This document shows, one piece after another, positions 43,985 to 57,541 of a DNA stretch of 64,000 nucleotides. Origin of the DNA: Thermoleptolyngbya sichuanensis A183 (GTDB lineage: Bacteria; Cyanobacteriota; Cyanobacteriia; Elainellales; Elainellaceae). The notes under the pieces were generated by a model, which was given only the letters and a program-made list of their open reading frames with translations, had not been told where the DNA came from and did not search any database. The position numbers were made by a program, and so were the translations under genes. Each line of letters opens with the position of its first letter. Position 1 is the first letter of the stretch. The DNA lies in NCBI RefSeq assembly GCF_013177315.1, contig NZ_CP053661.1, positions 682,001 through 746,000 of the forward strand, read 5' to 3'.

Positions 43985-44092
43985 GCAGCGGGAAGGGTTG
44001 AGGTAGAGGGGCAGATTTGGGATTTTAGATTTGGGGCTTCGGTTGCGGGTGGAAGCATCAAGAGCGCTATGCGAGACTGATGTAGGTCAATT

Positions 44093-44128
44093 GGCGATCC
44101 AAAATCGTCAATCTAAAATCCAAAATGA
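44093..44128. repeat. CCAAAAT heptamer repeats
   Basis: GATCCAAAATCGTCAATCTAAAATCCAAAATG, the same heptamer words as at 28530-28605, lies in the 180-bp spacer after the GNAT gene. An inverse ATTTTAGATTTGGGG stands at 44013-44036. Confidence 0.55.
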
Positions 44129-44167
44129 ATTATTTAAGTCAGATTGATGCAAGCAGGAGAACACCCC

Positions 44168-44389
44168 ATGACCCCTACCGAAATTAACTGCGCCGAAGCG
44201 TGTAAAAACGGCTGCGTTCTGGGCGATCGCTGTCCCAATCAGGAATATCGCAACCAGGCGTCGCAGTTTATCGAAACCACGTCGCTGGATAAGATGCTGG
44301 AAATGGCAGAGGAAGCGCTGCGCCGCAAAGCGATGGAGCCGCCCAAGTGGGTTTTCCCAGAAGATGGAATCGGCCCGGATGTTGAGTAA
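44168..44389 (+). CDS. Small Cys-containing protein, function unknown
   Basis: A 73-aa protein starting MTPTEINCAEACKNGCVLGD, chosen because AGGAGA lies 8 bases upstream (the frame itself opens at 44144). Four cysteines in the first 25 residues (NCAEACKNGC and DRCPNQ) suggest metal or Fe-S binding. The rest is helical and charged (LDKMLEMAEEALRRKAMEPP, KWVFPEDG). Similar short proteins with this Cys pattern are conserved in cyanobacteria. The stop is 14 bp before the RluD-type gene, indicating an operon. Confidence 0.75.
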   Translation: MTPTEINCAEACKNGCVLGDRCPNQEYRNQASQFIETTSLDKMLEMAEEALRRKAMEPPKWVFPEDGIGPDVE

Positions 44390-44403
44390 GATACCTGGCA
44401 TTG

Positions 44404-45501
44404 ATGGGGACAGCCTGCGGAGGCACTGTGGATAACCGTCCGAGCAATGATTCAGGCGATTTTGACAATGAAGCGGTTGACGATGAAGCGTTTGACGATG
44501 AAGCGTTTGACGACCCGGAGCTAGCGCCCCAAGGCATTGATGCAGCCGTCGATGTAACCGCCGATGTAGCCGATCTGGAGCTAGTGGTGGATGCGGGAAT
44601 CGGTAGGGGCGATCGCCTCGATCGCTATCTCGCAGCCCGTTTGCCCGATCTGTCCCGCGCCCGCCTGCAAAAGCTAATCGAGCAGGGGCAGGTGCGCGTC
44701 AACGGGGTTCCCTGCACGTCCAAAAAAGCGGAGGTTCAGGGGGGCGATCGCCTCACGGTGTCTATTCCGCCTTCTGAGCCGATGACGCTCCAAGCCGAAG
44801 CCATTCCCCTCAATATCCTGTTTGAAGACGCACACCTGATTATTGTGAATAAGCCCGTGGGTCTGGTGGTGCATCCTGCGCCAGGCCACACCACGGGGAC
44901 GCTGGTGAATGCGCTGCTAGCGCACTGTCCCGACTTAGCGGGCATTGGCGGCGTGCAGCGGCCAGGCATCGTGCATCGGCTGGATAAAGACACCAGCGGT
45001 GCGCTGGCGATCGCCAAGACCGATCAGGCGCATCAGCGTTTACAGGCTCAGTTCAAAACCAAAACCGCCCGACGCACCTATCTGGCAGTAGTCTACGGTG
45101 CGCCCAAGGCAGATGCGGGTACCGTGGACGCGCCCATTGGTCGTCATCCGGTAGATCGCAAAAAAATGGCGATCGTGCCGGAAGATCGCGGCGGGCGACG
45201 CGCCGTGACCCACTGGCAGGTGGTCGAACGCCTGGGCAATTACACGCTGATGCAATTTGACCTGGAAACGGGGCGCACGCACCAGATCCGTGTCCACAGC
45301 GCCCACCTGGGGCATCCGGTGGTAGGCGACCCGGTCTACAGCGGCGGCAAATCTGTCGGCGTGAACTTACCGGGGCAGGCGCTCCATGCCTGGAAGCTGC
45401 GGCTGTATCACCCGATTTCTGAGAAAGAGATCGAGGCGATCGCCCCTCCGCCGGACTCTTTTGCGACGCTTTTGCGCGTTTTGCGGCAGCGTTTTGTGTG
45501 A
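44404..45501 (+). CDS. rluD: RluD-type pseudouridine synthase
   Basis: Isomerises uridines in 23S rRNA (helix 69 in E. coli RluD). The first 60 residues form an acidic extension with a repeated DDEAF unit, unusual for the family. An S4 RNA-binding domain follows (RLDRYLAARLPDLSRARLQK) and then the catalytic domain with GIVHRLDKDTSGALAIAK, where the Asp of RLDKDTSG is the nucleophile, and LETGRTHQIRVH. The C-terminus ends LRVLRQRFV. ATG 44404 follows a TTG (44401); either could serve. The 15-bp spacing from the preceding gene suggests co-transcription. Target uridines are inferred from the family. Confidence 0.93.
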   Translation: MGTACGGTVDNRPSNDSGDFDNEAVDDEAFDDEAFDDPELAPQGIDAAVDVTADVADLELVVDAGIGRGDRLDRYLAARLPDLSRARLQKLIEQGQVRVNGVPCTSKKAEVQGGDRLTVSIPPSEPMTLQAEAIPLNILFEDAHLIIVNKPVGLVVHPAPGHTTGTLVNALLAHCPDLAGIGGVQRPGIVHRLDKDTSGALAIAKTDQAHQRLQAQFKTKTARRTYLAVVYGAPKADAGTVDAPIGRHPVDRKKMAIVPEDRGGRRAVTHWQVVERLGNYTLMQFDLETGRTHQIRVHSAHLGHPVVGDPVYSGGKSVGVNLPGQALHAWKLRLYHPISEKEIEAIAPPPDSFATLLRVLRQRFV

Positions 45502-46101
45502 CAAATCTCAAATTAGCGAAGGACTTGTTTACATTGCTTAAAATTATGAGTACACTCAGACCGCCCTCAGAGAGTATTTATACCTTTGTCCAGGCAACGG
45601 TTTTCAGAATTCTTAAGAGAATCTAAAATGCCAAATTCTGCTTCTATGAGGAGTTGGCAGGCGCGAAAATGTAAACAAATGTGCCGGAAATGATTTGCAG
45701 AAATATGCCGCAAAGCTTTGCCTGTCAAGCCTTTGCGGGCATATCTGAGCGGTTCTATGCAATTTAATAACTTGTAACAAGTAAATGGGTTAACCGCATT
45801 GTATAAAGAGATTCGGAAGGGTACAAACCACAGACAGAGTACGACAATTCGCTGGTTTGCCAGGTTCTAAACCTTCTCATCTAACTGTGAAGTTTTTCTC
45901 GGATTTATGAGAAGCGCCTTGCGTCCGGGAAGATGAGTTCAGCGGCTAAGCCGTTCTCTCTCATCTGTGGGAGCCTTTCCAAGCTGCATGTGTCGCCGTG
46001 TTAACTCAGCACTGCTATCCATCAGCAACAGTGAAGACTGGGCTACCTTTCATCCAGTTTTTAAGACCGAACTCAACCAAAACGATTAGGAGATTGAGTC
46101 C
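45502..46101 (+). promoter_or_regulatory. cpc promoter and leader region
   Basis: A 600-bp gene-free region upstream of cpcB. A TATAAA -10 candidate lies at 45802-45807; no matching -35 is obvious. CTTCTCAT and ATGAGAAG (45873-45880 and 45907-45914) form a leader hairpin about 190 bases before cpcB. AGGAGA at about 46088 is a good ribosome binding site. Light or nutrient control sites could not be recognised by eye. Confidence 0.55.
45873..45914 (+). promoter_or_regulatory. Hairpin in the cpcB leader
   Basis: An 8-bp stem, CTTCTCAT with ATGAGAAG, around a 26-base loop that itself contains TTTTTC. It lies downstream of the probable -10 box, so it should be in the 5' untranslated RNA, where it may affect mRNA stability. 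No attenuator T-run follows. Confidence 0.5.
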
Positions 46102-46620
46102 ATGTTAGATGCTTTCGCTAAAGTCGTTTCCCAGGCTGACACGAAGGGAGAGTTTCTGAGCAGCGCCCAACTCGACGCTCTGAGCAACGTAGTCAAGGAT
46201 GGCAGCAAGCGTCTGGATGCCGTTAACCGCATGACCAGCAACGCTTCCACCATCGTTGCAAACGCTGCACGCTCTCTGTTTGAAGAGCAGCCCCAGCTGA
46301 TCCAGCCCGGTGGAAATGCTTACACCAACCGTCGTATGGCTGCTTGCCTGCGCGACATGGAGATCATCCTGCGCTATGTGACCTATGCAACTCTGGCGGG
46401 TGACTCCAGCGTTCTGGATGACCGCTGCCTGAACGGCTTGCGCGAAACCTATCAAGCGCTGGGCGTGCCCGGTGGTTCTGTGGCTGCTGGCGTTGCCAAA
46501 ATGAAGGACGCCGCAATTTCCATCGTCAACGACCCCAACGGCATCACCAAGGGTGACTGCTCTGCGCTGGTGTCTGAAATTGCCAGCTACTTCGATCGCG
46601 CTGCTGCTGCGGTTGCGTAA
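46102..46620 (+). CDS. cpcB: C-phycocyanin beta subunit
   Basis: A 172-aa light-harvesting globin-like subunit that pairs with CpcA and forms (alpha-beta)3 discs in phycobilisome rods. It opens [20 protein letters not shown]. Phycocyanobilin is bound at Cys82 (RRMAACLRD) and Cys153 ([10 protein letters not shown]), and Asn72 (GGNAYTNR), the site methylated by CpcM, is present. Length and sequence are standard. AGGAGA precedes the ATG by about 8 bases. It is first in the cpc operon. PecB was rejected because no pec lyase genes are present and the sequence follows CpcB. Confidence 0.98.
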
Positions 46621-46750
46621 TTTGGCTTTGGTGATGGGCTGGTGCTGTCCTGTGCAGCCTCAGGCTCTAGCCTACAGTTCTCGGCTCCGTGCCGACGGTT
46701 TTCAAAATACTCAAGGACAACTTTAGGTTTTTTAGGGAGATATCTCGACT

Positions 46751-47239
46751 ATGAAGACCCCGATTACTGAAGCGATCGCCGCAGCAGATACCCAAGGCCG
46801 TTTCCTCAGCAACACCGAGCTGCAAGCTGTTAACGGTCGCTTCGAGCGTGCCGCTGCCAGCATGGAAGCTGCTCGTGCGCTGACCAATAATGCTCAGCAA
46901 CTGATCGACGGTGCTGCAAATGCCGTGTATCAGAAGTTTCCCTACACCACCCAGATGCAGGGCGCAAACTTTGCCTCGGATTCTCGCGGCAAGTCCAAGT
47001 GCGCTCGTGACATCGGCTACTACCTGCGGATCATCACCTACTCGTTGGTTGCAGGTGGCACCGGCCCGCTGGATGAGTACCTGATCGCTGGTCTGGATGA
47101 AATCAACCGCACCTTCGATCTGTCTCCCAGCTGGTATGTGGAAGCTCTGAAGTATATCAAGGCGAACCACGGTCTGTCTGGTCAGGCTGCAAACGAAGCT
47201 AACACCTACATCGACTACGCAATCAACGCCCTGAGCTAG
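46751..47239 (+). CDS. cpcA: C-phycocyanin alpha subunit
   Basis: A 162-aa partner of CpcB. It opens [20 protein letters not shown]. The single bilin site is Cys84 ([11 protein letters not shown]), the substrate of the CpcE/CpcF lyase encoded downstream. The C-terminus ends [12 protein letters not shown] as in other CpcA. AGGGAG lies about 11 bases upstream of ATG. It is 130 bp after cpcB. A strong hairpin follows, which probably sets the high ratio of subunits to linkers. Confidence 0.98.
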
Positions 47240-47250
47240 TTGATTGTGCT

Positions 47251-47309
47251 TGCCCGGAAAGGTAAGCAATTGCTGGTTCACGACTGGCAGGGGTTTACCT
47301 TTCCGGGCA
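47251..47309 (+). terminator. Hairpin after cpcA
   Basis: TGCCCGGAAAGGTAA (47251-47265) and TTACCTTTCCGGGCA (47295-47309) form a perfect 15-bp stem with a 29-base loop. No T-run follows, so it more likely causes partial termination or protects the 3' end of the abundant cpcBA mRNA, with read-through to linker genes. Confidence 0.85.
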
Positions 47310-47651
47310 TTGTTATATCTGTGCGCGAGATTTGGGTGGGTGATGTCTAAGTTGCAGGATCTGAACGAAGCTTCTGCACTGGGCTATACCTAGTCTGATC
47401 TGTTCGCACCAATTTGCGATTGAAGCTTCTGTGTTTATTTCGACGCGCTTGTGGCAACGGCGGAAGCAGTCTGGGAACGCAGGCGATCAGAACCGGTGAA
47501 GTTCTGCTGGTTCAGGCTTCTGAGATTTTTGTTCTGGCGTTCGTTCTGGCCTGATGGATTGGTTTTCCGCATTGGGCGCTGAGCTTTGAGCACCCTCTCG
47601 TCACAAGGGCTTTTCAAAACCGAGTGCCAGTTTTAGGAGGAGGGATTTGAG
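47310..47651. other. Spacer between cpcA hairpin and first rod linker
   Basis: A 342-bp gene-free region within the cpc locus. AGGAGGAGGG at 47635-47644 is a strong ribosome binding site for the first linker. No second promoter is clear. Confidence 0.4.
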
Positions 47652-48497
47652 ATGAGCGGTCTGGTTGCGGCAGATCGATTAGGCATTACTGCGTTTTCGC
47701 CGAGCGATCGCGTAGAACTGCGTCCAAACTGGACAGAAGACGACGTGCAGGCTGTGATTTGGGCAGCCTATCGTCAAGTGCTGGGAAATGATCACCTGAT
47801 GGCAAGCGAACGTCTGACCAGCGCAGAGTCGCTCTTGCGCCAGGGGCAGATCAGTGTCCGCGACTTTGTGCGGGCGATCGCCCAGTCTGAACTGTATAAG
47901 GAGAAGTTTTTCTATTCCAATCCCCAGGTTCGATTCATCGAACTGAATTACAAGCATCTGTTGGGCCGCGCACCCTACGATGAGTCCGAGATCGCCTTCC
48001 ATGTTGACCTGTATGACCAGCAGGGCTATGAGGCAGAGATTAACTCCTACCTCGACTCGACGGAATATCAGGAAAGCTTTGGCGATTCAGTCGTGCCGTC
48101 CTATCGCGGGTTCAACTCGCAGCGGGGGCAAAAGACCGTCGGATTTACGCGCATGTTTCGGCTGTACCGGGGCTATGCCAACAGCGATCGCGCTCAGTAT
48201 GGCAAGAACCGCCCCCGGCTGACGCAGGAAGTGGCTCGCAACCTGCCTATGCCGATCCAGCCGCCTTCCACAGGCCGCGTCAGCGAGTTTGTCGGAGCCG
48301 GAGCTGGGTTGGTGGGTGCAGCAGCGGGCGATCGCGACCAGCTCTATCGAGTCCGCTATACCCAGTCCGTTGCCAGCGGACGGGCCCCTCTGCGGCTCAG
48401 CAATCGCGACCTGCTCGTTTCCTACGATCAGCTTTCCACGCGCCTCCAGCAGATCAATCGCGCAGGCGGTCGGGTGCTTAGCATCAGCGCCGTCTAG
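47652..48497 (+). CDS. cpcC2: Phycobilisome rod linker, CpcC type (first copy)
   Basis: An L_R-type linker of 281 aa. The N-terminal PBS linker domain (Pfam00427, about 20-175) with [40 protein letters not shown] and [14 protein letters not shown] sits inside the phycocyanin hexamer. The C-terminal CpcD-like domain (about 215-281) starts QLYRVRYTQ and ends [20 protein letters not shown]. It makes rod-rod contacts between adjacent hexamers. It is a paralogue of the next gene. The numbering C2/C1 follows the two-linker order of Synechocystis and is provisional. Confidence 0.93.
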
Positions 48498-48503
48498 GGT
48501 TCA

Positions 48504-48531
48504 GGGTAGCCTCAAGAATCGCCCGCTACCC
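48504..48531 (+). other. Hairpin between the two cpcC genes
   Basis: GGGTAGC and GCTACCC form a 7-bp stem with a 14-base loop right after the first linker stop. No T-run follows. One of several stem-loops in cpc spacers. Confidence 0.5.
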
Positions 48532-48625
48532 GTTTGAGTTCCGGTTTCTAGTGGTTGGGGTTTGGGGTCAGCTTCAAGCGCCAACCGCTTCCAAGCCATT
48601 CGCAAACACGAAGGAGAGATCGACC

Positions 48626-49507
48626 GTGCCAGTTACCGCAGCAGCATCCCGTTTGGGAACATCTCCGTTTGACGGAGCGCCCCGGGTAGAACTCCGCCCC
48701 AATTACACCAAAGAGGATGTCGAAAACGTCATTCGCGCCGTCTATCGGCAGGTGTTGGGCAACGACTACCTGATGAAGTCCGAACGACTCACCAGCGCCG
48801 AATCGCTCCTCCGCGACGGCAACATCAGCGTCCGTGAATTTGTTCGCGCCGTTGCCAAGTCTGACCTTTACAAGCAGAAGTTCCTTTACGGCAACTTCCA
48901 GACCCGCGTGATCGAGCTGAACTACAAGCACCTGCTGGGTCGTGCGCCCTACGATGAGTCGGAAGTCATCTTCCACCTCGACCTGTACGAAACCCAGGGC
49001 TTTGATGCGGATATCGACTCTTACATCGACTCCGAGGAGTATCAGTCTAACTTCGGCGAAAGCATCGTGCCCTACTATCGCGGCTTCGAGTACTATGCCG
49101 GGGCCCGCACGGTTGCCTTTAACCGCATGTTCCGTCTCTATCGCGGCTATGCCAACAGCGATCGCTCTCAGGCAGAGGGCCGCGTGCCCCACCTGGCCCG
49201 CGACCTCGCTCAAAACAAGCCGACCTCTATTGTCAGCCCCTCTGGCAGCGGCAGCTTTGCCTTCTTCCGCGCTTCAGATGATGTGGCTCCCAGCAAGTGC
49301 CTGGGTGGCTCCGTGGGCGAAAGCACCCGCGTCTATCGGGTAGAAGTAGCAGGCCTGCGAAACGGTGGCTCTGGCGTTGGCTATCCCAAGCTGCGCCGCA
49401 GCAGCACTGCTTACCTGGTGCCCTACGATCAGCTCTCTGCCCGGATGCAGCAAATCCAGCGCCAGGGTGGTCGCATCGTTAGCGTGTCGCTAGCCAGCGC
49501 AAGCTAG
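48626..49507 (+). CDS. cpcC1: Phycobilisome rod linker, CpcC type (second copy)
   Basis: A 293-aa rod linker. The start is GTG 48626 ([17 protein letters not shown]), because AAGGAGA lies 8 bases upstream and the opening fits the family; the upstream extension to 48551 is not credible. Pfam00427 linker domain about 20-180 (FIRAVYRQ-like [40 protein letters not shown]) and CpcD-like C-terminus about 225-293 ([36 protein letters not shown]). It links phycocyanin hexamers within rods. It is clearly a tandem duplicate of the preceding gene. Confidence 0.94.
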
Positions 49508-49516
49508 GTTTCAGGA

Positions 49517-49597
49517 ATCAGGGTTTGGGACTTGGCGCTTGAGCCTTTGACTGGCTTCCAGGCTTGCGGCTTGACCTGAACCTCCTGAACCCTGATC
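49517..49597 (+). other. Inverted repeat between cpcC1 and cpcD
   Basis: ATCAGGGTT (49517-49525) and AACCCTGAT (49589-49597) form a 9-bp stem around a long loop that holds further short repeats (GGCTT words). Possibly a mild attenuator between rod linkers and the capping linker. Confidence 0.5.
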
Positions 49598-49634
49598 CCT
49601 CCCTTTTATCCTCTAGACAATGGAGAACAGGACA

Positions 49635-49874
49635 ATGTACGGTCAAACTGCTGTGGGAAGTGCCGCAAATTCGCCTTCTGGGGCGCGGATGTTTCGCTAT
49701 GAAGTCGTGGGTCTGCGTCAGAGCCAAGAGACAGACAAGAATAACTACGCGATTCGCAACAGTGGCAGCGTCTTTTTCACAGTTCCTTATAACCGCATGA
49801 ACGAAGAGATGCAGCGCATCCTGCGGATGGGCGGCAAGATTGTCAAGATCGAACCGCTGACGAGCGATTCATAA
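49635..49874 (+). CDS. cpcD: Small rod-capping linker CpcD
   Basis: A 79-aa linker (Pfam01383) that caps the outer end of phycocyanin rods and limits their length. The frame opens at 49620, but MYGQTAVGSAANSPSGARMF from ATG 49635 is the family start, and GGAG lies 10 bases upstream. The typical end VPYNRMNEEMQRILRMGGKI followed by VKIEPLTSDS is present. It is followed 48 bp later by cpcE. Confidence 0.95.
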   Translation: MYGQTAVGSAANSPSGARMFRYEVVGLRQSQETDKNNYAIRNSGSVFFTVPYNRMNEEMQRILRMGGKIVKIEPLTSDS

Positions 49875-49922
49875 GCACGCGATCGCCCCTTTGGACGGAA
49901 CGCGACACCCCCAGGTTCAGGA

Positions 49923-50771
49923 ATGCTTGACGGAACATCGGAGACGCAGTTTGAGGAATCGACCGCTGTATCGGAAGCCACTGGCGCAGAAGCGCTGACG
50001 GTGGAGCAGGCGATCGCCAATCTTTCCCATCCCGACACCAGCTTGCGCTATTACGCAGCATGGTGGTTGGGGAAGTTTCGTGTGTCTGATCCGGCTGCTG
50101 TGGATGCGCTAATTGCAGCACTCCGCGACGAGTCCGATCGAACCGAACTGGGCGGCTACCCGCTGCGGCGGAATGCGGCCCGGGCCCTGGGGAAGCTGGG
50201 CGATTGCCGTGCCGTTCCGGGGCTGATGGAGTGTCTTGGCTGTGAGGACTTTTATGTGCGCGAGTCGGCGGCGCAGTCGTTAGGAATGCTGGGCGATGCG
50301 TCCTGCGTGCCCGCGCTGCTGGGCCTGTTGGCGGGCGGCGTAGCGGCGGCGATAAAGGTTCCGGGCCGGCCTCACCTGGCCCAGCCCTACGAAGCCATTC
50401 TAGAGGCGCTGGGCGCATTGGGGGCTGTGGAAGCCGTCGAGGTGATTCGTCCCTTTGTCGAGCATCCGCTCCAGCGGGTTCAATATTCGGCGGTGCGGGC
50501 GCTGTACCAGTTGACGGAAGACGCGGCCTACGGCGATCGCCTGGTGGCCGCGCTGCAAAGCGACGACATCAACCTGCGCCGCGTCGCCCTTTCGGATCTG
50601 GGTGCTGTGGGCTATTTGCCCGCCGCCGAGGCGATTGCCACTGCTGCCACCGAAAACAGCTTCAAGCTCTTTTCCCTGAAAGGGCTGCTGGAACGCGCCA
50701 TGCGCCAGTCGCCCCACAGCCTCAGCGCCGATGCGGTCAAAGTGATGACGCTGATGGACGAGATGCTCTGA
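49923..50771 (+). CDS. cpcE: Phycocyanobilin lyase subunit CpcE
   Basis: One half of the heterodimeric E/F-type lyase that attaches phycocyanobilin to Cys84 of CpcA. The 282-aa protein is made of HEAT/E-Z helical repeats: LRYYAAWWLGKFRVSDPAAV, LRRNAARALGKLGDCRAVPG, VRESAAQSLGMLGDASCVPA and others. The C-terminus holds FKLFSLKGLLERAMRQ, a conserved CpcE stretch. Its partner cpcF begins 172 bp further down. A CAGGA sequence lies close before ATG 49923. Confidence 0.95.
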   Translation: MLDGTSETQFEESTAVSEATGAEALTVEQAIANLSHPDTSLRYYAAWWLGKFRVSDPAAVDALIAALRDESDRTELGGYPLRRNAARALGKLGDCRAVPGLMECLGCEDFYVRESAAQSLGMLGDASCVPALLGLLAGGVAAAIKVPGRPHLAQPYEAILEALGALGAVEAVEVIRPFVEHPLQRVQYSAVRALYQLTEDAAYGDRLVAALQSDDINLRRVALSDLGAVGYLPAAEAIATAATENSFKLFSLKGLLERAMRQSPHSLSADAVKVMTLMDEML

Positions 50772-50943
50772 GCAGCCGCCAGGTTGGCCAGCCGCCAAAT
50801 TGTCCGCCAAGTTATCAGATAGCAGAGTTGAATAGCGAAGTTGAAAAAGGCAGCGGGGAAGCAAGCCCCTACCCCTTTTCTCTCAACCCTGTGTCTTTTC
50901 ACGCCGATCCTCTGTCGCTCCCCGCCTCTTTCCTGCTTTATTC

Positions 50944-51615
50944 ATGTCCACCTCCCTTGCCACCCTTATTGCCGACATCGACCGGGCTGATTCCCCGGAA
51001 CGGCTGATCGCGGCAGTGCAGGCCTTGGCGGCAGCGCGTCTGGAAGGGGGCATCCCAACGCTGATTCGAGCGCTGGGGTTCAACAATCCTGGCGCAGCGG
51101 TAACGGCTGTGAAGGGGCTGGTGCAGATGGGTGAAGCGGCGGTGATGCCTCTGTTGACGCTGCTGGATGACTATAACTACGGAGCGCGAGCCTACGCAAT
51201 TCGGGCACTGGCGGCGATCGCCGATCCGCGTGCGCTGGATGTGCTGCTGTCGGCGGCCGAGGCGGACTTTGCTCCCAGTGTGCGCCGCGCGGCCACCAAG
51301 GGCGTAGGGCAGTTGCTCTGGCTCAAGCTGGCAGACTCCGAGCGGGCGATCGCCCAGTCCCGCACCTACGATACGCTCGTTCGCATCCTAGACGATGCTG
51401 ACTGGTCGATCCGCTATGCGGCGATCGCCGGACTGCAAGCCCTAGGACAGTCCACACCCGACTTGCAGCCTCAGATTCTCGAAACACTGCGAACTCTCGC
51501 AGACTCGGATATTGCCGTGCAGGCGCGGGTTCAGTGGGCGATCGCTACGCTGCAATCTCCCCAGCCCGTTCCCAACAGCTTCCCTGGCTCCCAAACCCCA
51601 ATCCCAAACCCCTAA
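50944..51615 (+). CDS. cpcF: Phycocyanobilin lyase subunit CpcF
   Basis: A 223-aa partner of CpcE; the dimer transfers phycocyanobilin to CpcA and can also remove it. HEAT-type repeats include ALGFNNPGAAVTAVKGLVQM, ARAYAIRALAAIADPRALDV, VRRAATKGVGQLLWLKLADS and IRYAAIAGLQALGQ. The C-terminal tail (PVPNSFPGSQTPIPNP) is proline-rich. The sequence before ATG 50944 is pyrimidine-rich (CTCTTTCCTGC) and has no ribosome binding site, so expression may depend on a leaderless or coupled mode. Confidence 0.94.
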   Translation: MSTSLATLIADIDRADSPERLIAAVQALAAARLEGGIPTLIRALGFNNPGAAVTAVKGLVQMGEAAVMPLLTLLDDYNYGARAYAIRALAAIADPRALDVLLSAAEADFAPSVRRAATKGVGQLLWLKLADSERAIAQSRTYDTLVRILDDADWSIRYAAIAGLQALGQSTPDLQPQILETLRTLADSDIAVQARVQWAIATLQSPQPVPNSFPGSQTPIPNP

Positions 51616-51628
51616 ACCTCTAACCACC

Positions 51629-52471
51629 ATGTCAATTCCCCTGCTCGAAATCACACCCAAAACCCAGAACCAGCGCGTACCCGGCTACGATGTTCCCGAC
51701 GAGGACGACGCTCGGATTTATCGCCTGACGGATGCCACCTCCGACACCGATGTCAACAACATCATCTGGGCCTGCTATCGCCAGATCTTCAGCGAGCATC
51801 TGATTTTGGAAAGCTATCGGCAGGAGTTTCTGGAATCGCAACTGCGGAACCGCGCCATTTCCGTGCGCGAGTTTATCCGAGGTCTGGGCAAATCGGAAGT
51901 CTATCGAGAGCAGATTGCCGAACTCAACTCCAACTATCGAGTGGTTGAGCTAACAGTGCAGCGCTTTTTGGGTCGCCCGTCCTACGGCAAACAGGAGCAA
52001 ATCGCCTGGTCGATTGTGATTGCCACCAAAGGGCTGCATGGCTTTATTGATGCGGTGGTGGACAGCGACGAATATCGTTCCAACTTCGGCGACGACATTG
52101 TGCCCTATCAGCGCCGCCGCATGGAGGCACGACCGTTTAATCTGGTGAACCCGCGCTATAACGACTATTGGCGCGGTCGCCTGCTGGAGCGGGAAATGAT
52201 GACCCGTTCTTACTACCAGGTGCGGCAGTATCAGGCGGGCGAACTGGACAAGAAAGTGGTGCGGCAAGCGATTCCGGCATCCTTCTTCATCATGGCAAAG
52301 GGTATCATCACGCCACAGCTTACGCCCCAGCGCGACGTGGCCCGCTCCACCTCCAGCGCCATCAAGGTGCCCGATATGAGCCGCGACGACAACGGCACCC
52401 CCAAGCCTACCGTCAAGCCTGTCGCCGCTCGGTTGCCCTACAGCTATATCCCGCCGCTGAAGAAGAATTAG
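51629..52471 (+). CDS. cpcG1: Rod-core linker CpcG (copy 1)
   Basis: Joins phycocyanin rods to the allophycocyanin core. The 280-aa protein starts MSIPLLEITPKTQNQRVPGY, from ATG 51629, which lies 14 bp after the cpcF stop. The single PBS linker domain (about 30-180) includes IIWACYRQIFSEHLILESYR, SVREFIRGLGKSEVYRE and [20 protein letters not shown]. The C-terminal 100 residues are longer than in the next copy and end PYSYIPPLKKN. No ribosome binding site is seen before the ATG (CTCTAACCACC). First of four cpcG-type genes. Confidence 0.95.
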   Translation: MSIPLLEITPKTQNQRVPGYDVPDEDDARIYRLTDATSDTDVNNIIWACYRQIFSEHLILESYRQEFLESQLRNRAISVREFIRGLGKSEVYREQIAELNSNYRVVELTVQRFLGRPSYGKQEQIAWSIVIATKGLHGFIDAVVDSDEYRSNFGDDIVPYQRRRMEARPFNLVNPRYNDYWRGRLLEREMMTRSYYQVRQYQAGELDKKVVRQAIPASFFIMAKGIITPQLTPQRDVARSTSSAIKVPDMSRDDNGTPKPTVKPVAARLPYSYIPPLKKN

Positions 52472-52580
52472 GGTTTCGGTATCCGGTGTCAGGGGTTGGG
52501 GTTCAGGAATTTACTCACGTCCTGGCCCCTACATCTGGTTCCCAAACCCCTAACTCCTAAACTCTAACCTCTGGAAAACC

Positions 52581-53324
52581 ATGAGCATTCCCCTTCTTGC
52601 ATACAAACCTGCGTCTCAAAACCAGCGCGTGCCGGGTTATGAAGTCGGCAACGAGGACACCCCCTATATCTATCGCTTGGAAGACGCAGCCGATAACTCC
52701 GACATCGAGCAGCTAATTTGGGCGGCCTATCGCCAAGTGTTCAGCGAGCACGTCATTTTGAAAAGCAGCCGTCAGGGTGATCTGGAATCGCAGTTGAAGA
52801 ACCGCTCGATTACAGTGCGGGACTTTATTCGCGGGCTGGCCAAGTCGGAAACCTACCGCAAGCTGGTGGTGGAAACCAATTCTAACTACCGGATTGTGGA
52901 CATTACGCTGAAGCGCCTGCTGGGTCGTGCGTCCTACAACCAGGATGAGCAAATCGCCTGGTCGATTGTGATTGCCACCGAAGGCTTTGAGGGCTTTGTC
53001 GATCAACTGCTAGACAGCGACGAGTATAGCACCAACTTTGGTGACAACACGGTTCCCTACCAGCGGCGGCGCTATCGCGATCGCCCCTTTAACTTGGTGA
53101 CTCCCCGCTATGGCGACTATTGGCGCGATCGCCTAGAAGCCGAGCGCTATAAGTGGGGTGACGTTCGCAACTTCCTCGAAATGGCGAAGGCCGTACAGCC
53201 AAAGCCGATGCAGTTTACCTCGGTGTCTACAGCAAATATCAAAATTCCCGATATGAGCCGCAGCAGCGCCACCGCAGGCGTGCCCGTGTCCATCAGCCCC
53301 TCGGCCAGCTTCCCCGTCCGCTAA
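52581..53324 (+). CDS. cpcG2: Rod-core linker CpcG (copy 2)
   Basis: A 247-aa rod-core linker paralogue with the same opening (MSIPLLAYKPASQNQRVPGY) and PBS linker domain ([60 protein letters not shown]). The C-terminus (KPMQFTSVSTANIKIPDMSR) shares the IKxPDMSR motif with copy 1, so these two are closest relatives. The spacer before it resembles the one before copy 1 (CCCAAACCCCTAA...CTCTAACC), as expected from tandem duplication. The upstream ribosome site is weak (CTGGAAAACC). Confidence 0.94.
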   Translation: MSIPLLAYKPASQNQRVPGYEVGNEDTPYIYRLEDAADNSDIEQLIWAAYRQVFSEHVILKSSRQGDLESQLKNRSITVRDFIRGLAKSETYRKLVVETNSNYRIVDITLKRLLGRASYNQDEQIAWSIVIATEGFEGFVDQLLDSDEYSTNFGDNTVPYQRRRYRDRPFNLVTPRYGDYWRDRLEAERYKWGDVRNFLEMAKAVQPKPMQFTSVSTANIKIPDMSRSSATAGVPVSISPSASFPVR

Positions 53325-53333
53325 AAGTCTGGC

Positions 53334-53400
53334 CTTCAGGCGTTGGCGGTTTGTGAAAGGCGGTTTGTGAAAACTGCGGATCAACCCTCAACGCCTGAAG
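53334..53400 (+). terminator. Hairpin after cpcG2
   Basis: CTTCAGGCGTTG (53334-53345) and CAACGCCTGAAG (53389-53400) form a 12-bp stem with a 43-base loop, starting 9 bp after the cpcG2 stop. No T-run follows. It may end or stabilise the first cpc transcript. Confidence 0.65.
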
Positions 53401-53998
53401 CGCTGGAAACTGTTTAAGACACCTAAGGCACCTAAGGCGCATTAAGGCACGTTAGGATACGCGCTGATTTCCGTTCTAGATTGACCACCTCTTGCATAAG
53501 AGACTTGCATAGAAGATTGGATTTAGCCGTTCAGAGCTAATTTATGAAGCAAATCTTAAGAAGCCTGAAACTCTTGGCATGTGTGGCTTTGAGGTCATGT
53601 TTGCCCAGGAAAAGCGGTTTCTCGGAAATCCTTGATTAACAAGGCTTTCAGGCTCCTTTACAAATTAGCTCTCAAACTTGTCCGTTCAAACTTAGCCGTT
53701 CAACCATAGTTCGTGCAGTGATTCGCGCTAATTTTCTCAACTCTGGCTAAATCGTATTTTGAGATTGTTCTACTGTCGGGTTAGGGATTGGTTCGCAAAG
53801 ATTGAAACCGGTGTGTTTTTTAGCTGACTGATTGTTTGATGAAGGGGCGATCGCCCGCATACTGTGCCCAATCGTTCCAGCTTACTCAGCCTGAATGCAA
53901 CGCTATGCTCTGGTGCATTCGGGTTCCTGTAGAATCCCCGACCCCTGACTCTGTGCAAGAAGTCTCTTCACCTTTCAGATGTTGAAGGAGAAATCGAG
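53401..53998. promoter_or_regulatory. Long spacer upstream of cpcL with imperfect inverted repeat
   Basis: About 600 bp. GAGCTAATTTATGAAGC...CCTGAAA (from 53534) and its imperfect inverse ending AATTAGCTC (to 53672) frame a 139-bp palindromic element. Words CCGTTCAAAC and TTAGCCGTTCA repeat near 53525-53720. GAAGGAGAAATC just before 53999 is a good ribosome binding site. Size and content suggest that cpcL has its own promoter here, separate from the main operon. Confidence 0.55.
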
Positions 53999-54736
53999 AT
54001 GACATTGCCTCTTTTAGACTACAAGCCAACCGCGCAAAACCAGCGGGTATCTAGCTTTGGCACGGTTGATACCAACGGCGACATTCTCTATATCTATCGG
54101 CTCGAAGACTCTCGTGCGGCGGATGAGGTGGACGAGTTGATCAACGCTGCCTATCGCCAGGTGTTTAACGAGCAAGAGCAGCTTCGGTTTAATCGCCAAA
54201 TTGCGCTGGAAACCCAGCTCCGCAACCACTCCATTTCCGTGCGGGACTTCATTCGGGGGCTAGCCAAGTCGGAGCGATTCTATCGGCTGGTGGTGGAGCC
54301 AAACAACAACTATCGCCTGGTCGAAATGTGCCTGAAGCGGCTCCTTGGCCGTGCGCCCTACAGCAAAGACGAAGAAATCGCCTGGTCGATTGTGATCGCC
54401 ACCAAGGGCTGGGGCGGCTTCGTGGATACGCTGATCGACAGCGACGAGTATGCCCAGGCCTTTGGCGACAACGTGGTGCCCTATCAGCGCAAACGGATGG
54501 GCGATCGCCCCTTCAGCTTTACCCCGCGCTATGGAGCCGCCTACCACGACAAGCTGCCGAAGCCCCGCCCCTACGTCCCTGCGGGTCGATTTGCCCTGAT
54601 CTTTGACCAGCCTTTCGACCTGCAAGCCTTCCTCAAGACGGCCAACTGGGGGCGCGTGTCGATTGTTGTGCTGACGCTGGTGCTGATGCTGGTCGTGCTG
54701 GCGCTGGTGAGTTCGCTGCCCGGAGCCACCGGATAA
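53999..54736 (+). CDS. cpcL: Membrane-anchored rod linker CpcL (CpcG3)
   Basis: A 245-aa CpcG paralogue whose C-terminus is a hydrophobic helix ([21 protein letters not shown], about 220-240), which marks CpcL. Such linkers hold core-less rods on the thylakoid and feed photosystem I or the NDH-1 complex. The PBS linker domain ([60 protein letters not shown]) is intact. In Anabaena the third cpcG gene is likewise CpcL, so the order is conserved. A 674-bp spacer upstream sets it apart from the genes before. Confidence 0.95.
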
Positions 54737-54875
54737 GCTGGATTCCATTTGCAAAAAAGCCGATTGCAGATGGAGTCTAGAGGTTCAATCCACGGGATAA
54801 TAAGCCAAAGACTGTCGTTAGACCGCTGGCTTGAACCATTTCAGACGTTCCATAAAACTGAAGGGAGATACTTGA

Positions 54876-55649
54876 ATGGCGTTGCCGTTGCTTGAATACA
54901 AACCAACCACTCAGAACCAACGGGTTCGCAGCTTTGGCGCTGCTGACCAGAACGAGGACACTCCGTACATCTATCGTCTAGAAGACGCTGCGGACGATTC
55001 CGATATGCAGCAAGTCATCTGGGCGGCCTATCGTCAGGTGTTTAGCGAACATCAGATCCTCAAATTCAACCGGCAGCCCGCGCTGGAATCTCAGCTCAAA
55101 AACCGTGTGATCACCGTGCGCGACTTTGTGCGGGGGCTGGCGCTGTCTGAGCGCTTTTACAGCCAGGTTGTGAGCGTGAACGACAACTATCGCTTGGTGG
55201 ACATTACGCTGCGCCGCCTGCTGGGTCGCAAAGCCTATAACCAAGACGAAACCATTGCCTGGTCAATCGTGATCGCCACCAAGGGCTTCGACGGTTTTGT
55301 GGATGCGCTGCTCGATAGCGAAGAATATACCAACGCCTTTGGGGACTATACCGTGCCCTATCAGCGCAAGCGCATGGGCAACCGCGATGAGGGTCGTCCT
55401 TTTAACCTGGTAACGCCGCGCTATGGCGAAGAGTTTCGCGACAAGGTGGGAACCACCAAGACCGACTGGCGCTTTGTGGTGGAGAAGTTCTACAGCCGCA
55501 AGTTCCAGGAGCGGATGCTGTCCGAGGGCGATCCCCGCAAGTATCGCGACATGGCCGCCGCTGTGGGGGCCAAGGGCAACTATGCTCAAACCCTCCGCGC
55601 CAACGATATCGACTACCTGAACAAGGTTCCCTATCGCGGTCGCCGCTAG
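54876..55649 (+). CDS. cpcG4: Rod-core linker CpcG (copy 4)
   Basis: A 257-aa rod-core linker. [20 protein letters not shown] opens it from ATG 54876 with AAGGGAG upstream. PBS linker domain: [60 protein letters not shown]. The C-terminal part differs from copies 1 and 2 and has no membrane helix ([32 protein letters not shown]). It lies 139 bp after cpcL. The last gene of the locus. It may serve rods attached to a different core site. Confidence 0.94.
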
Positions 55650-55938
55650 TGGGGTTCAGGGATCACAGGTTGAAGATGAGCAGTGGGGCGATCGCCCTGT
55701 TGAACATCACGCCTTCCCGCTAACAAACCTCATCAGTGTGCCAACATCGCCAGAGCGCGATTTCCAGAATCCGGTTTTGCAAATCTTGAAGCTGCTCACA
55801 GACCGCGCTGCCTAAAGCGCCGCCCAGCGAGTGGTTTTGGGACTGGCAAAGCCGGATTTAGTTTTTGCGCCTTTGCTTCCAGGCCCCATCACGGCATAAC
55901 GCTGAGCCAGCCAGATGGCGCTAAGCCAGCCGATGACG

Positions 55939-57321
55939 CTAAGCCAGCCAGCCTACGCGAGTCAGCGGCAAATTCCAGCGTGTCTCCGACTTTGGACGCA
56001 GCAGCGTTTGATAAAGCCCCATCTGATTCTGTTCAAAGCCGAGAGCAGAGCCAAGCAGATAGGCCCGCCAGAGTTGCAGATAGCGATGGGGCAGCGTTTC
56101 AGGCAGGGTGCTGGGCAAGCGGCCCGATTGCTCACTGTTTTCTAGCATTCGGTTCCGCATTGCGTCGCCCAAAAGCCGTTTTGCCTGAGCAGCAGCGTTT
56201 CGCAGATTGGCTTCCCAGCAGCGCAGGGTTTTGGCGTAGTGGAGTCGCCAGGCATCTACATCCACAATTTCCCAGCCTGCTGCTTCGGCCGCCGCCAGCA
56301 GTGTCGAAATCTGTAGCAGTTCGCCGTGGGGAAAGATGTAGCGGTTGATGAACCGTTCGCCCAGGCTGCTGCCGTTCCATTCGGTGCTGGCCGTGATGCC
56401 GTGGTTGAGGAATAGCCCCCCTGGTTTGAGCGATCGCCCAATTCGCTGAAAATAAACGGGCAGGTTCCTGCGACCCACATGTTCCACCATGCCCACGGAC
56501 ACGATCTTGTCAAATGTGGGCGTTTGCGGCAGGTCGCGATAGTCCATCAACTGCGCCTGGAGGCGATCGCCCAGGCCCGCCTCTGCAATTTTTGCCTGGT
56601 TATAGTCCAATTGCGCCTGGCTGAGCGTGATGCCAACGCCGTGTACGCCGTATCGTTCCACCGCCCAGCGCAGCAGCGCCCCCCAGCCACAGCCAATATC
56701 CAGCAGCGTTTCCCCCGGCGACAGGCGCAGCTTGCGACAGATCAGGTCTAGCTTGGCTGCCTGCGCCTCGGCCAGCGACATCTGTTCTGTTTCAAAGTGG
56801 GCGCAGGAGTAGACCATGCGCGGGTCGAGCCAGAGCTGATAAAAGTCGTTGCCCATGTCGTAGTGGTGATGGATGGCGGCTCGGTCTTGTGCTGGGGTGT
56901 GGCGCGTCTTTTCGGAAGACAGGCTGGGCTGGGTTTTGAGGGAGGGCAGCGACAGGGCGGCGCGAGCGGCTTGCAGCGTGGTGAGGTTGAGCGGAATCGG
57001 GACTCGACCCAACTGCTGCATGGCCACGATCAGCGTTTCCAGATCGCCCACAAAATCACAGTCGCCGTTGAGATAGCCCTCTACCAGGATGAGCGGATCG
57101 CGGCGGGTCAGGAGCGATCGCACGATGCCAGGATGCCGAATCTGGAGGCTCACAGGCGGCGGATCGTCGGCATTGCAGTGAATCCAGAGTTGCTCACGTC
57201 CCCAAAAATCCAGGCAAAGGGGAACGGATAGCTGACTGAATGCTGCTTCTAGCCAGGTGCGGAGGGCGGGCGGCAGGGCGATCGCCCACTGTGGCGCTGC
57301 GGAAGCCTGAGACCGTTGCAA
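55939..57321 (-). CDS. Cyclopropane-fatty-acid synthase-like methyltransferase
   Basis: A 460-aa SAM-dependent methyltransferase of the CFA/mycolic acid synthase family, acting on acyl chains of membrane lipids or on related substrates. The N-terminal SCP2-like region (about 10-120) contains LIVAMQQLGRVPIPLNLT. The catalytic domain has HHHYDMGNDFYQLWLDPRMV, YSCAHFETEQMSLAEAQ and the SAM site LLDIGCGWGALLRWA (about 215). VSVGMVEHVGRRNLP follows, the family E/G motif. The frame opens only at TTG 57321. A better start with GGAGG 8 bases upstream (ATG 57335) is one base out of frame, so a start-site frameshift is possible. Confidence 0.88.
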   Translation of the reverse strand: MQRSQASAAPQWAIALPPALRTWLEAAFSQLSVPLCLDFWGREQLWIHCNADDPPPVSLQIRHPGIVRSLLTRRDPLILVEGYLNGDCDFVGDLETLIVAMQQLGRVPIPLNLTTLQAARAALSLPSLKTQPSLSSEKTRHTPAQDRAAIHHHYDMGNDFYQLWLDPRMVYSCAHFETEQMSLAEAQAAKLDLICRKLRLSPGETLLDIGCGWGALLRWAVERYGVHGVGITLSQAQLDYNQAKIAEAGLGDRLQAQLMDYRDLPQTPTFDKIVSVGMVEHVGRRNLPVYFQRIGRSLKPGGLFLNHGITASTEWNGSSLGERFINRYIFPHGELLQISTLLAAAEAAGWEIVDVDAWRLHYAKTLRCWEANLRNAAAQAKRLLGDAMRNRMLENSEQSGRLPSTLPETLPHRYLQLWRAYLLGSALGFEQNQMGLYQTLLRPKSETRWNLPLTRVGWLA

Positions 57322-57420
57322 TTCTGAACAACCATCGGAGTGTCCTCCAGTTGAATCTGAGGCTAGTTATTCTAGGATAGTGTTTGCGTTGGGTCGGCTG
57401 CTTTGGCAGGCTCCGGGACG

Positions 57421-57541
57421 CAACACAACTGCAACACAACTGCAACACAACTTCAGAGACGGGTTCCAGAGACAGGTTTCGGGAGTCTTCGAGAACTCCG
57501 GGAACTCAACTCCCGGAACTCAACTCCGGGAACGAGTAGAG
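57421..57541. repeat. Short tandem repeats upstream of yebC
   Basis: ACACAACTGCA-type units (CAACACAACTGCAACACAACTG) around 57421-57450, then three GGAACTCAACTCC-like units around 57498-57536, fill the spacer between the methyltransferase start and yebC. Confidence 0.6.

What the first reader, a model, noticed from the sequence alone, without database searches (positions are those of the whole stretch)
46102..55649. cpc locus with two cpcC and four cpcG-type genes including CpcL
The order is cpcB A C C D E F G G L G. Most operons have one cpcC, or one to three cpcG. The combination of tandem cpcC with the Anabaena-like G1-G2-L-G4 set and no pec genes suggests an unusually flexible antenna: rods of different lengths on the core and rod-only CpcL complexes on the membrane. 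The C-terminal tails of the cpcG-type copies are unlike each other except 1 and 2, which share an IKxPDMSR motif.
Basis: partly seen in the sequence, partly recalled or inferred. Interest (0 to 1): 0.5.

Follow-up and report, generated by a model that had tools for sequence, protein, structure and literature searches.

The report
Known phycobilisome rod gene cluster
This is the gene cluster that builds the light-harvesting rods of a hot-spring cyanobacterium; every gene is a known type, the same gene set has already been published for what is almost surely this very strain, and the arrangement is uncommon but ordinary.

Summary
The window holds cpcB-A-C-C-D-E-F-G1-G2-L-G4 on the + strand (46102-55649), and the whole genome has one cpcBA pair and no pec-like pair. 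Tang et al. [quoted passage not shown] What I add: (1) the tandem cpcC look like the Synechocystis-type C2-C1 pair, not a local duplication; (2) the four CpcG-type proteins fall in four clades shared with Nostocales, so they are orthologues of Anabaena CpcG1, G2, L(G3) and G4; (3) their tails are conserved inside each class, not drifting neutrally; (4) IKxPDMSR is a near-private spelling of a looser G1/G2 signature; (5) of 64 complete loci of other genomes, 23 have CpcL, 6 have tandem cpcC, 2 have both. So the combination is uncommon but made of known parts. "Unusually flexible antenna" is plausible, untested and not special to this strain. Interest is low. A separate bilin-protein-like gene plus linker elsewhere in the genome is the more open lead.

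The parts
46102..46620 (+). cpcB, phycocyanin beta
   Evidence: TIGR01339, 312 bits, cut-off 279
46751..47239 (+). cpcA, phycocyanin alpha
   Evidence: TIGR01338, 311 bits, cut-off 269
47251..47309 (+). strong hairpin just after cpcA (-44.8 kcal/mol, z -7.8); may set the ratio of cpcBA to linker mRNA (inference)
   Evidence: a 90-nt stretch folding at -25 kcal/mol or better lies in the cpcA-cpcC gap of 61 of 63 other loci (no shuffled control there)
47652..48497 (+). first cpcC, CpcC2-type (distal) rod linker
   Evidence: PF00427 + PF01383; 338 bits to the chain named rod linker 2 (7sc8) against 300 to rod linker 1; tree
48626..49507 (+). second cpcC, CpcC1-type (core-near) rod linker
   Evidence: PF00427 + PF01383; 449 bits to 7veb CpcC, 431 to 7eyd (Anabaena) CpcC, 375 to rod linker 1 and 273 to rod linker 2 of 7sc8; tree
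49635..49874 (+). cpcD, rod-capping linker
   Evidence: NF058509, 138 bits, cut-off 80
49923..50771 (+). cpcE, phycocyanobilin lyase subunit
   Evidence: NF058502, 427 bits, cut-off 330
50944..51615 (+). cpcF, phycocyanobilin lyase subunit
   Evidence: NF058515, 256 bits, cut-off 220
51629..52471 (+). cpcG1, rod-core linker
   Evidence: NF058511, 476.5 bits, cut-off 430; Anabaena CpcG1 chain 7eyd_A3 over nearly the whole length
52581..53324 (+). cpcG2, rod-core linker
   Evidence: NF058512, 471.7 bits, cut-off 420; 7eyd_A1 over the whole length
53325..53998 (+). 674-nt gap before cpcL, with an inverted repeat just after cpcG2; longest G2-L gap of the survey
   Evidence: 23 other loci: 21-407, median 187; hairpin z -3.8; no promoter-like site found in the gap; one one-mismatch CcaR-like box at 53656 (not above chance)
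53999..54736 (+). cpcL (Anabaena cpcG3), rod-membrane/PSI linker with C-terminal membrane segment
   Evidence: best single-domain structure matches are chains named Photosystem I-associated linker protein CpcL, 9wd5/9w4j/9w7k (310-312 bits, linker part); hydropathy 3.06; tree; below the CpcG3 model cut-off
54876..55649 (+). cpcG4, rod-core linker
   Evidence: NF058513, 474.4 bits, cut-off 440; 7eyd_A2 over the whole length

Best explanation
This is the single phycocyanin-rod cluster of Thermoleptolyngbya sichuanensis A183. CpcB/CpcA make the discs, CpcE/F attach the bilin, CpcC1 and CpcC2 stack a second and a third hexamer, CpcD caps the rod. CpcG1, CpcG2 and CpcG4 bind the rod base with a shared linker domain and dock it through class-specific tails at different places of a five-cylinder core (ApcE has four linker repeats). 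CpcL has the same linker domain but a membrane helix instead of a core-binding tail, so it holds core-less rods at the thylakoid membrane, probably at photosystem I. Shown here: gene identities, orthology, membrane-type segment, conservation of tails. Inferred from studied relatives: rod length, docking sites, PSI attachment. Not shown: expression or light control.
For: Domain and family matches. Matches of G1, G2, G4 over (nearly) their whole length to the chains of the same name in 7eyd, and of L's linker part to chains named CpcL. Tree of 83 linkers: G1 20 rows (support 99), G2 20 (88), L 16 (99), G4 20 (94), each holding the window's copy together with Nostocales. Tree of 57 CpcC: 19 C2-type rows apart from 32 C1-type rows. 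Four linker domains in one 1138-aa ApcE frame. Tail conservation. PMC9205905 passages: in Nostoc 7120, deleting CpcG1, G2 and G4 together leaves rods unbound, single deletions change the binding. PMC11165356 passages: CpcL, formerly CpcG3, found with PSI of heterocysts by mass spectrometry.
Against: CpcL scores below the curated cut-off of the CpcG3 model (369 against 425), and its tail is only 30% identical (median, n = 23) to other CpcL tails, so PSI contacts may differ. The first CpcC prefers the rod-linker-2 chain only modestly (338 bits against 326 for 7veb CpcC, 313 for Anabaena CpcC and 300 for rod linker 1). Nothing here shows that all six linkers are made. Trees are quick searches with SH-aLRT support only; class labels come from best BLAST match to the window's own proteins. 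The strain name rests on genome size.
Confidence: 0.92

Rival explanations
1. The cluster is a recent local expansion: cpcC and cpcG duplicated in this lineage and the copies are now drifting.
For: Tandem position; tails unlike each other between the four CpcG-type copies (17-30%).
Against: Each copy groups with its namesake from other families and orders, not with its neighbours. Tails conserved within class: median identity 46% (G1), 64% (G2), 65% (G4), 30% (L), against 5-6% in shuffled controls.
Confidence: 0.02
2. The first cpcC (C2 type) was put into an Anabaena-type cluster by horizontal transfer, rather than kept from an ancestor and lost elsewhere.
For: Only 6 of 64 complete G1-G2-G4 loci have it.
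Against: It sits at the same place (after cpcA, before C1) in all six and in further loci without cpcG beside them; the window's C2 and C1 have the same nearest row, L036. Gain and loss cannot be told apart on an unrooted tree.
Confidence: 0.15
3. cpcL is present but hardly used, or used only under stress (iron or nitrogen lack), so the antenna is in practice the ordinary core-bound one.
For: In Anabaena CpcL was hardly seen in vegetative PSI fractions; it was found in heterocysts and, by earlier work that the paper cites, under iron lack (PMC11165356 passages). No promoter-like or CcaR-like site stands out before cpcL.
Against: The frame and the membrane segment are intact, and a gene of this type lies between cpcG2 and cpcG4 in 23 of 64 complete loci. 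This rival is about use, not identity, and may be true together with the main reading.
Confidence: 0.4

Closest known systems
T. sichuanensis A183 cpc cluster as published (Tang et al. 2023, PMC10053587)
   Different: They number the last gene cpcG3, leave open which cpcC is distal, and in the parts I saw do not assign the tandem pair to C2 and C1
Anabaena (Nostoc) sp. PCC 7120 cpc operon with cpcG1-G2-G3(L)-G4
   Same: Same four CpcG-type genes, each orthologous
   Different: Anabaena 7120 has one cpcC in this operon and pec genes (recalled; some Nostocales loci, such as L109, look so); the window has tandem cpcC and no pec
Synechocystis sp. PCC 6803 cpcBAC2C1D
   Same: Order B-A-C2-C1-D (recalled), with the first CpcC nearer to rod linker 2 and the second nearer to rod linker 1 of 7sc8
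   Different: Synechocystis has its cpcG genes outside this operon and a three-cylinder core (recalled)
   Same: The same complete gene order, tandem cpcC and CpcL included
   Different: Other genera (L025 and L036 are of the same family); G2-L gaps of 70 nt (L025) and 393 nt (L036) instead of 674

Membership tests
Anabaena-type cpcG1-G2-L-G4 cluster | Four CpcG-type genes, each orthologous to its Anabaena namesake | tested here: met
   NCBIfam and 7eyd/CpcL chain matches; tree. The L copy is below the CpcG3 model's cut-off
CpcL (rod-membrane linker) | CpcG-type linker domain plus C-terminal membrane segment | tested here: met
   PF00427 164 bits; hydropathy 3.06 over 19 residues; clade of 16 L rows, support 99
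CpcL (rod-membrane linker) | Found in core-less rods bound to PSI or membrane | not testable with these tools
   Needs biochemistry
Synechocystis-type cpcC2-cpcC1 pair | Tandem linkers, first C2-type, second C1-type, each with a CpcD domain | tested here: met
   the margin for the first gene is modest, and the organism of 7sc8 is recalled
Five-cylinder phycobilisome | ApcE with four linker repeats and several CpcG | tested here: met
   Four PF00427 domains in one 1138-aa frame; core shape itself not tested
CA1-type light control of cpcL by CcaR | CcaR box before cpcL | tested here: inconclusive
   Recalled box CTTTNCNATTT: no exact match in the window; 16 one-mismatch matches against 13.2 expected, one of them in the G2-L gap at 53656. 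ccaS/ccaR genes not sought

The most novel reading that the evidence does not exclude
The strain has a further light-harvesting or bilin-sensing module beyond the cpc and apc genes: a divergent phycobiliprotein-like protein that keeps the bilin-type cysteine and its aspartate, with its own single-domain linker next to it (genome 2,388,960-2,390,202), running beside core-bound rods and CpcL rods. The same pair sits together in 23 of 29 other genomes looked at and is not among the genes in the tables and sections that I saw of the paper on this strain.
Probability: 0.25. Interest if true: 0.55.

Novelty: already known. Interest (0 to 1): 0.13.

Why it matters
It gives a heat-tolerant, genome-complete example in which one cluster encodes two rod linkers, three core-docking linkers and one PSI-type linker, useful for structural work on five-cylinder phycobilisomes. 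It changes no general idea: each part and the set itself were known.

Tried and rejected
Recent duplication of cpcC or cpcG: rejected by trees. Neutral drift of tails: rejected by within-class conservation. Known RNA elements in 44000-57500: none at gathering score. CcaR box before cpcL: a one-mismatch match at 53656, not above chance in the window. A promoter for cpcL in the 674-nt gap: none found; the scan gives 4 sites in 45500-56000 against 4.2 expected. Conserved hairpins around cpcL: present in the window, but a stretch folding at -25 kcal/mol or better is in only 11 of 23 G2-L gaps and 4 of 23 L-G4 gaps of other loci (no shuffled control), so not taken as a conserved control. Literature on the phycobiliprotein-like/linker pair: one search gave 0 papers; no claim of absence from print beyond that search and the parts of PMC10053587 that I saw. 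No structure was predicted.

Limits: orthologue labels come from the best BLAST match to the window's own proteins, membrane tails from a hydropathy threshold, pec genes from identity thresholds; the survey sample was drawn by CpcE similarity (best 80 of 511) and kinship, so its shares are not shares of all cyanobacteria. The trees used selections: 83 of 229 CpcG-type rows, 57 of 119 CpcC rows. Organism names of PDB chains other than 7eyd are recalled.

Full report
Identity of the source. The window lies in a single-contig genome of 5,525,100 bases. This is the exact size given for Thermoleptolyngbya sichuanensis A183, CP053661 (PMC8461337, passages seen). The match of size is my only test of identity, but the gene set also agrees with what is published for A183.

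Observation. The order cpcB-A-C-C-D-E-F-G1-G2-L-G4 on the + strand is real and the genes are named by curated models. G1, G2 and G4 pass the NCBIfam cut-offs of the models of the same name. L fits the CpcG3 (= CpcL) model best but below its cut-off (369 against 425 bits). Against solved structures G1, G2 and G4 match over (nearly) their whole length the Anabaena chains of the same name in 7eyd (370.9, 411.4 and 411.1 bits), and L matches chains named CpcL over its linker part (310-312 bits); the multi-domain chains CpcN and ApcE list higher than these for L because several domains add up. L alone has a membrane-type segment. The genome has 11 linker domains: six in this cluster, four in one ApcE frame and one elsewhere. 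PF00502 shows a single cpcBA pair and nothing like a pec pair.

Is it known? Yes. Tang et al. 2023 (PMC10053587; [quoted passage not shown] They describe the hydrophobic C-terminal segment of CpcL and suggest CpcL-PBS for PSI. They leave open which cpcC is distal.

What the tandem cpcC is. The first CpcC scores 338.2 bits to the 7sc8 chain named rod linker 2, 325.9 to 7veb CpcC, 312.8 to Anabaena CpcC and 300.4 to 7sc8 rod linker 1. The second scores 449.4 to 7veb CpcC, 431.2 to Anabaena CpcC, 374.9 to rod linker 1 and 273.3 to rod linker 2. (7sc8 as Synechocystis and 7veb as T. vulcanus are recalled.) In a tree of 57 CpcC rows, 19 first-type rows are one group (96) and 32 second-type rows another, with five pec-locus linkers far off and one long row (L054) apart. 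So the pair looks like the C2-C1 pair, and the single CpcC of most loci is the C1 type.

What the CpcG quartet is. In a tree of 83 rows from 25 loci and the window, G1 (20 rows), G2, L and G4 (20, 94) separate, each with Leptolyngbya-like, Fischerella, Nostoc and Anabaena members; G1 joins G2 (95) and L joins G4 (97). Seven rows of other loci, three labelled G4, three G2 with a membrane tail and one L, fall outside these groups. The quartet is thus shared and older than this lineage.

Tails. Identity of the tail to the window's copy, as median (range): G1 46% (36-69, n = 66), G2 64% (54-72, n = 65), G4 65% (33-80, n = 67), L 30% (23-65, n = 23); shuffled tails give medians of 5-6% and at most 12%. 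The linker part has a median of 74% in all four. So the tails of G1, G2 and G4 are clearly conserved; CpcL keeps mainly a short stretch after the linker domain and a hydrophobic segment: 23 of 23 proteins outside the window whose best match is L have one, against 4 of 202 of the others. The strict motif IKxPDMSR is in 2 of 67 G1 and 1 of 66 G2, window included; a looser form is in 66 of 66 G2, 34 of 67 G1, 0 of 24 L and 0 of 68 G4 (the four non-L rows with a membrane tail are not in these counts).

How common. Of 93 loci kept from 100, 64 hold a complete B-A-C-D-E-F-G1-G2-G4 set; 23 of these also have a CpcL-type gene, 6 have tandem cpcC, 13 have pec genes in the locus, and 2 (L025, L036) have both tandem cpcC and CpcL. 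The window is not among the 64. The only other held genome of the same genus has the tandem cpcC, but its contig ends in cpcF. Tandem cpcC also occurs in several loci where no cpcG follows.

Control signals. A very stable hairpin follows cpcA (-44.8 kcal/mol, z -7.8), and a stretch folding at -25 kcal/mol or better is in that gap in 61 of 63 other loci (no shuffled control), so it is a general trait of such clusters. The G2-L gap of 674 nt is the longest among 24 loci; the 23 others range from 21 to 407. It has a hairpin near cpcG2, but no promoter-like site or Rfam element, and one one-mismatch CcaR-like box that is not above chance. Separate control of cpcL is possible and is suggested by Tang et al.; I could not show it.

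Mechanism. From structures and mutants of relatives: CpcG1, G2 and G4 dock rods on a five-cylinder core in different ways (PMC9205905 passages), C1 and C2 lengthen rods (inference from the chain names), CpcL associates with PSI (PMC11165356 passages). In this strain these steps are inferred from orthology. A CpcD domain in a 504-aa frame at 5,206,682 has the layout of the long FNR that caps rods; I did not test it further.

Verdict. Low interest.

Noticed in passing
own genome 2,388,960-2,390,202 (L011:960-2202; L165:5961-7203): A divergent phycobiliprotein-like gene (157 aa, PF00502 74 bits) followed by a single-domain linker (245 aa, PF00427, no CpcD domain, no NCBIfam model above cut-off). 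Of 145 genomes searched, 29 besides the own one have a copy at 50-64% identity (more at lower identity); the linker lies within about 1.5 kb in 23 of these 29. Cys75 and Asp78, which by eye fall on the bilin cysteine and aspartate of CpcB, are invariant in 31 of 31 rows (own genome twice). In wider stretches of five of the 29, no other neighbour is shared with the own genome, and the linker is there in 4 of 5. A relative of the linker is also in the same-genus genome G001.
   Followed up: partly
own genome 1,991,385-1,991,864 (L018:1471-1950): Another divergent PF00502 protein (159 aa, 77 bits) that lacks the bilin cysteine at that place by eye; no NCBIfam model above cut-off.
   Followed up: no
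own genome about 3,965,887-3,968,427 (L022:260-2800): A weak PF00502 protein (163 aa) between two V4R-domain proteins; resembles the Synechocystis slr0144-slr0152 cluster (name recalled).
   Followed up: no
   Followed up: no
L096, L098, L111: In Symploca, Hormoscilla and Moorena loci a CpcG-type gene with a hydrophobic tail lies near cpcB and forms its own branch outside the Anabaena-type CpcL clade, so membrane tails may have arisen more than once.
   Followed up: no
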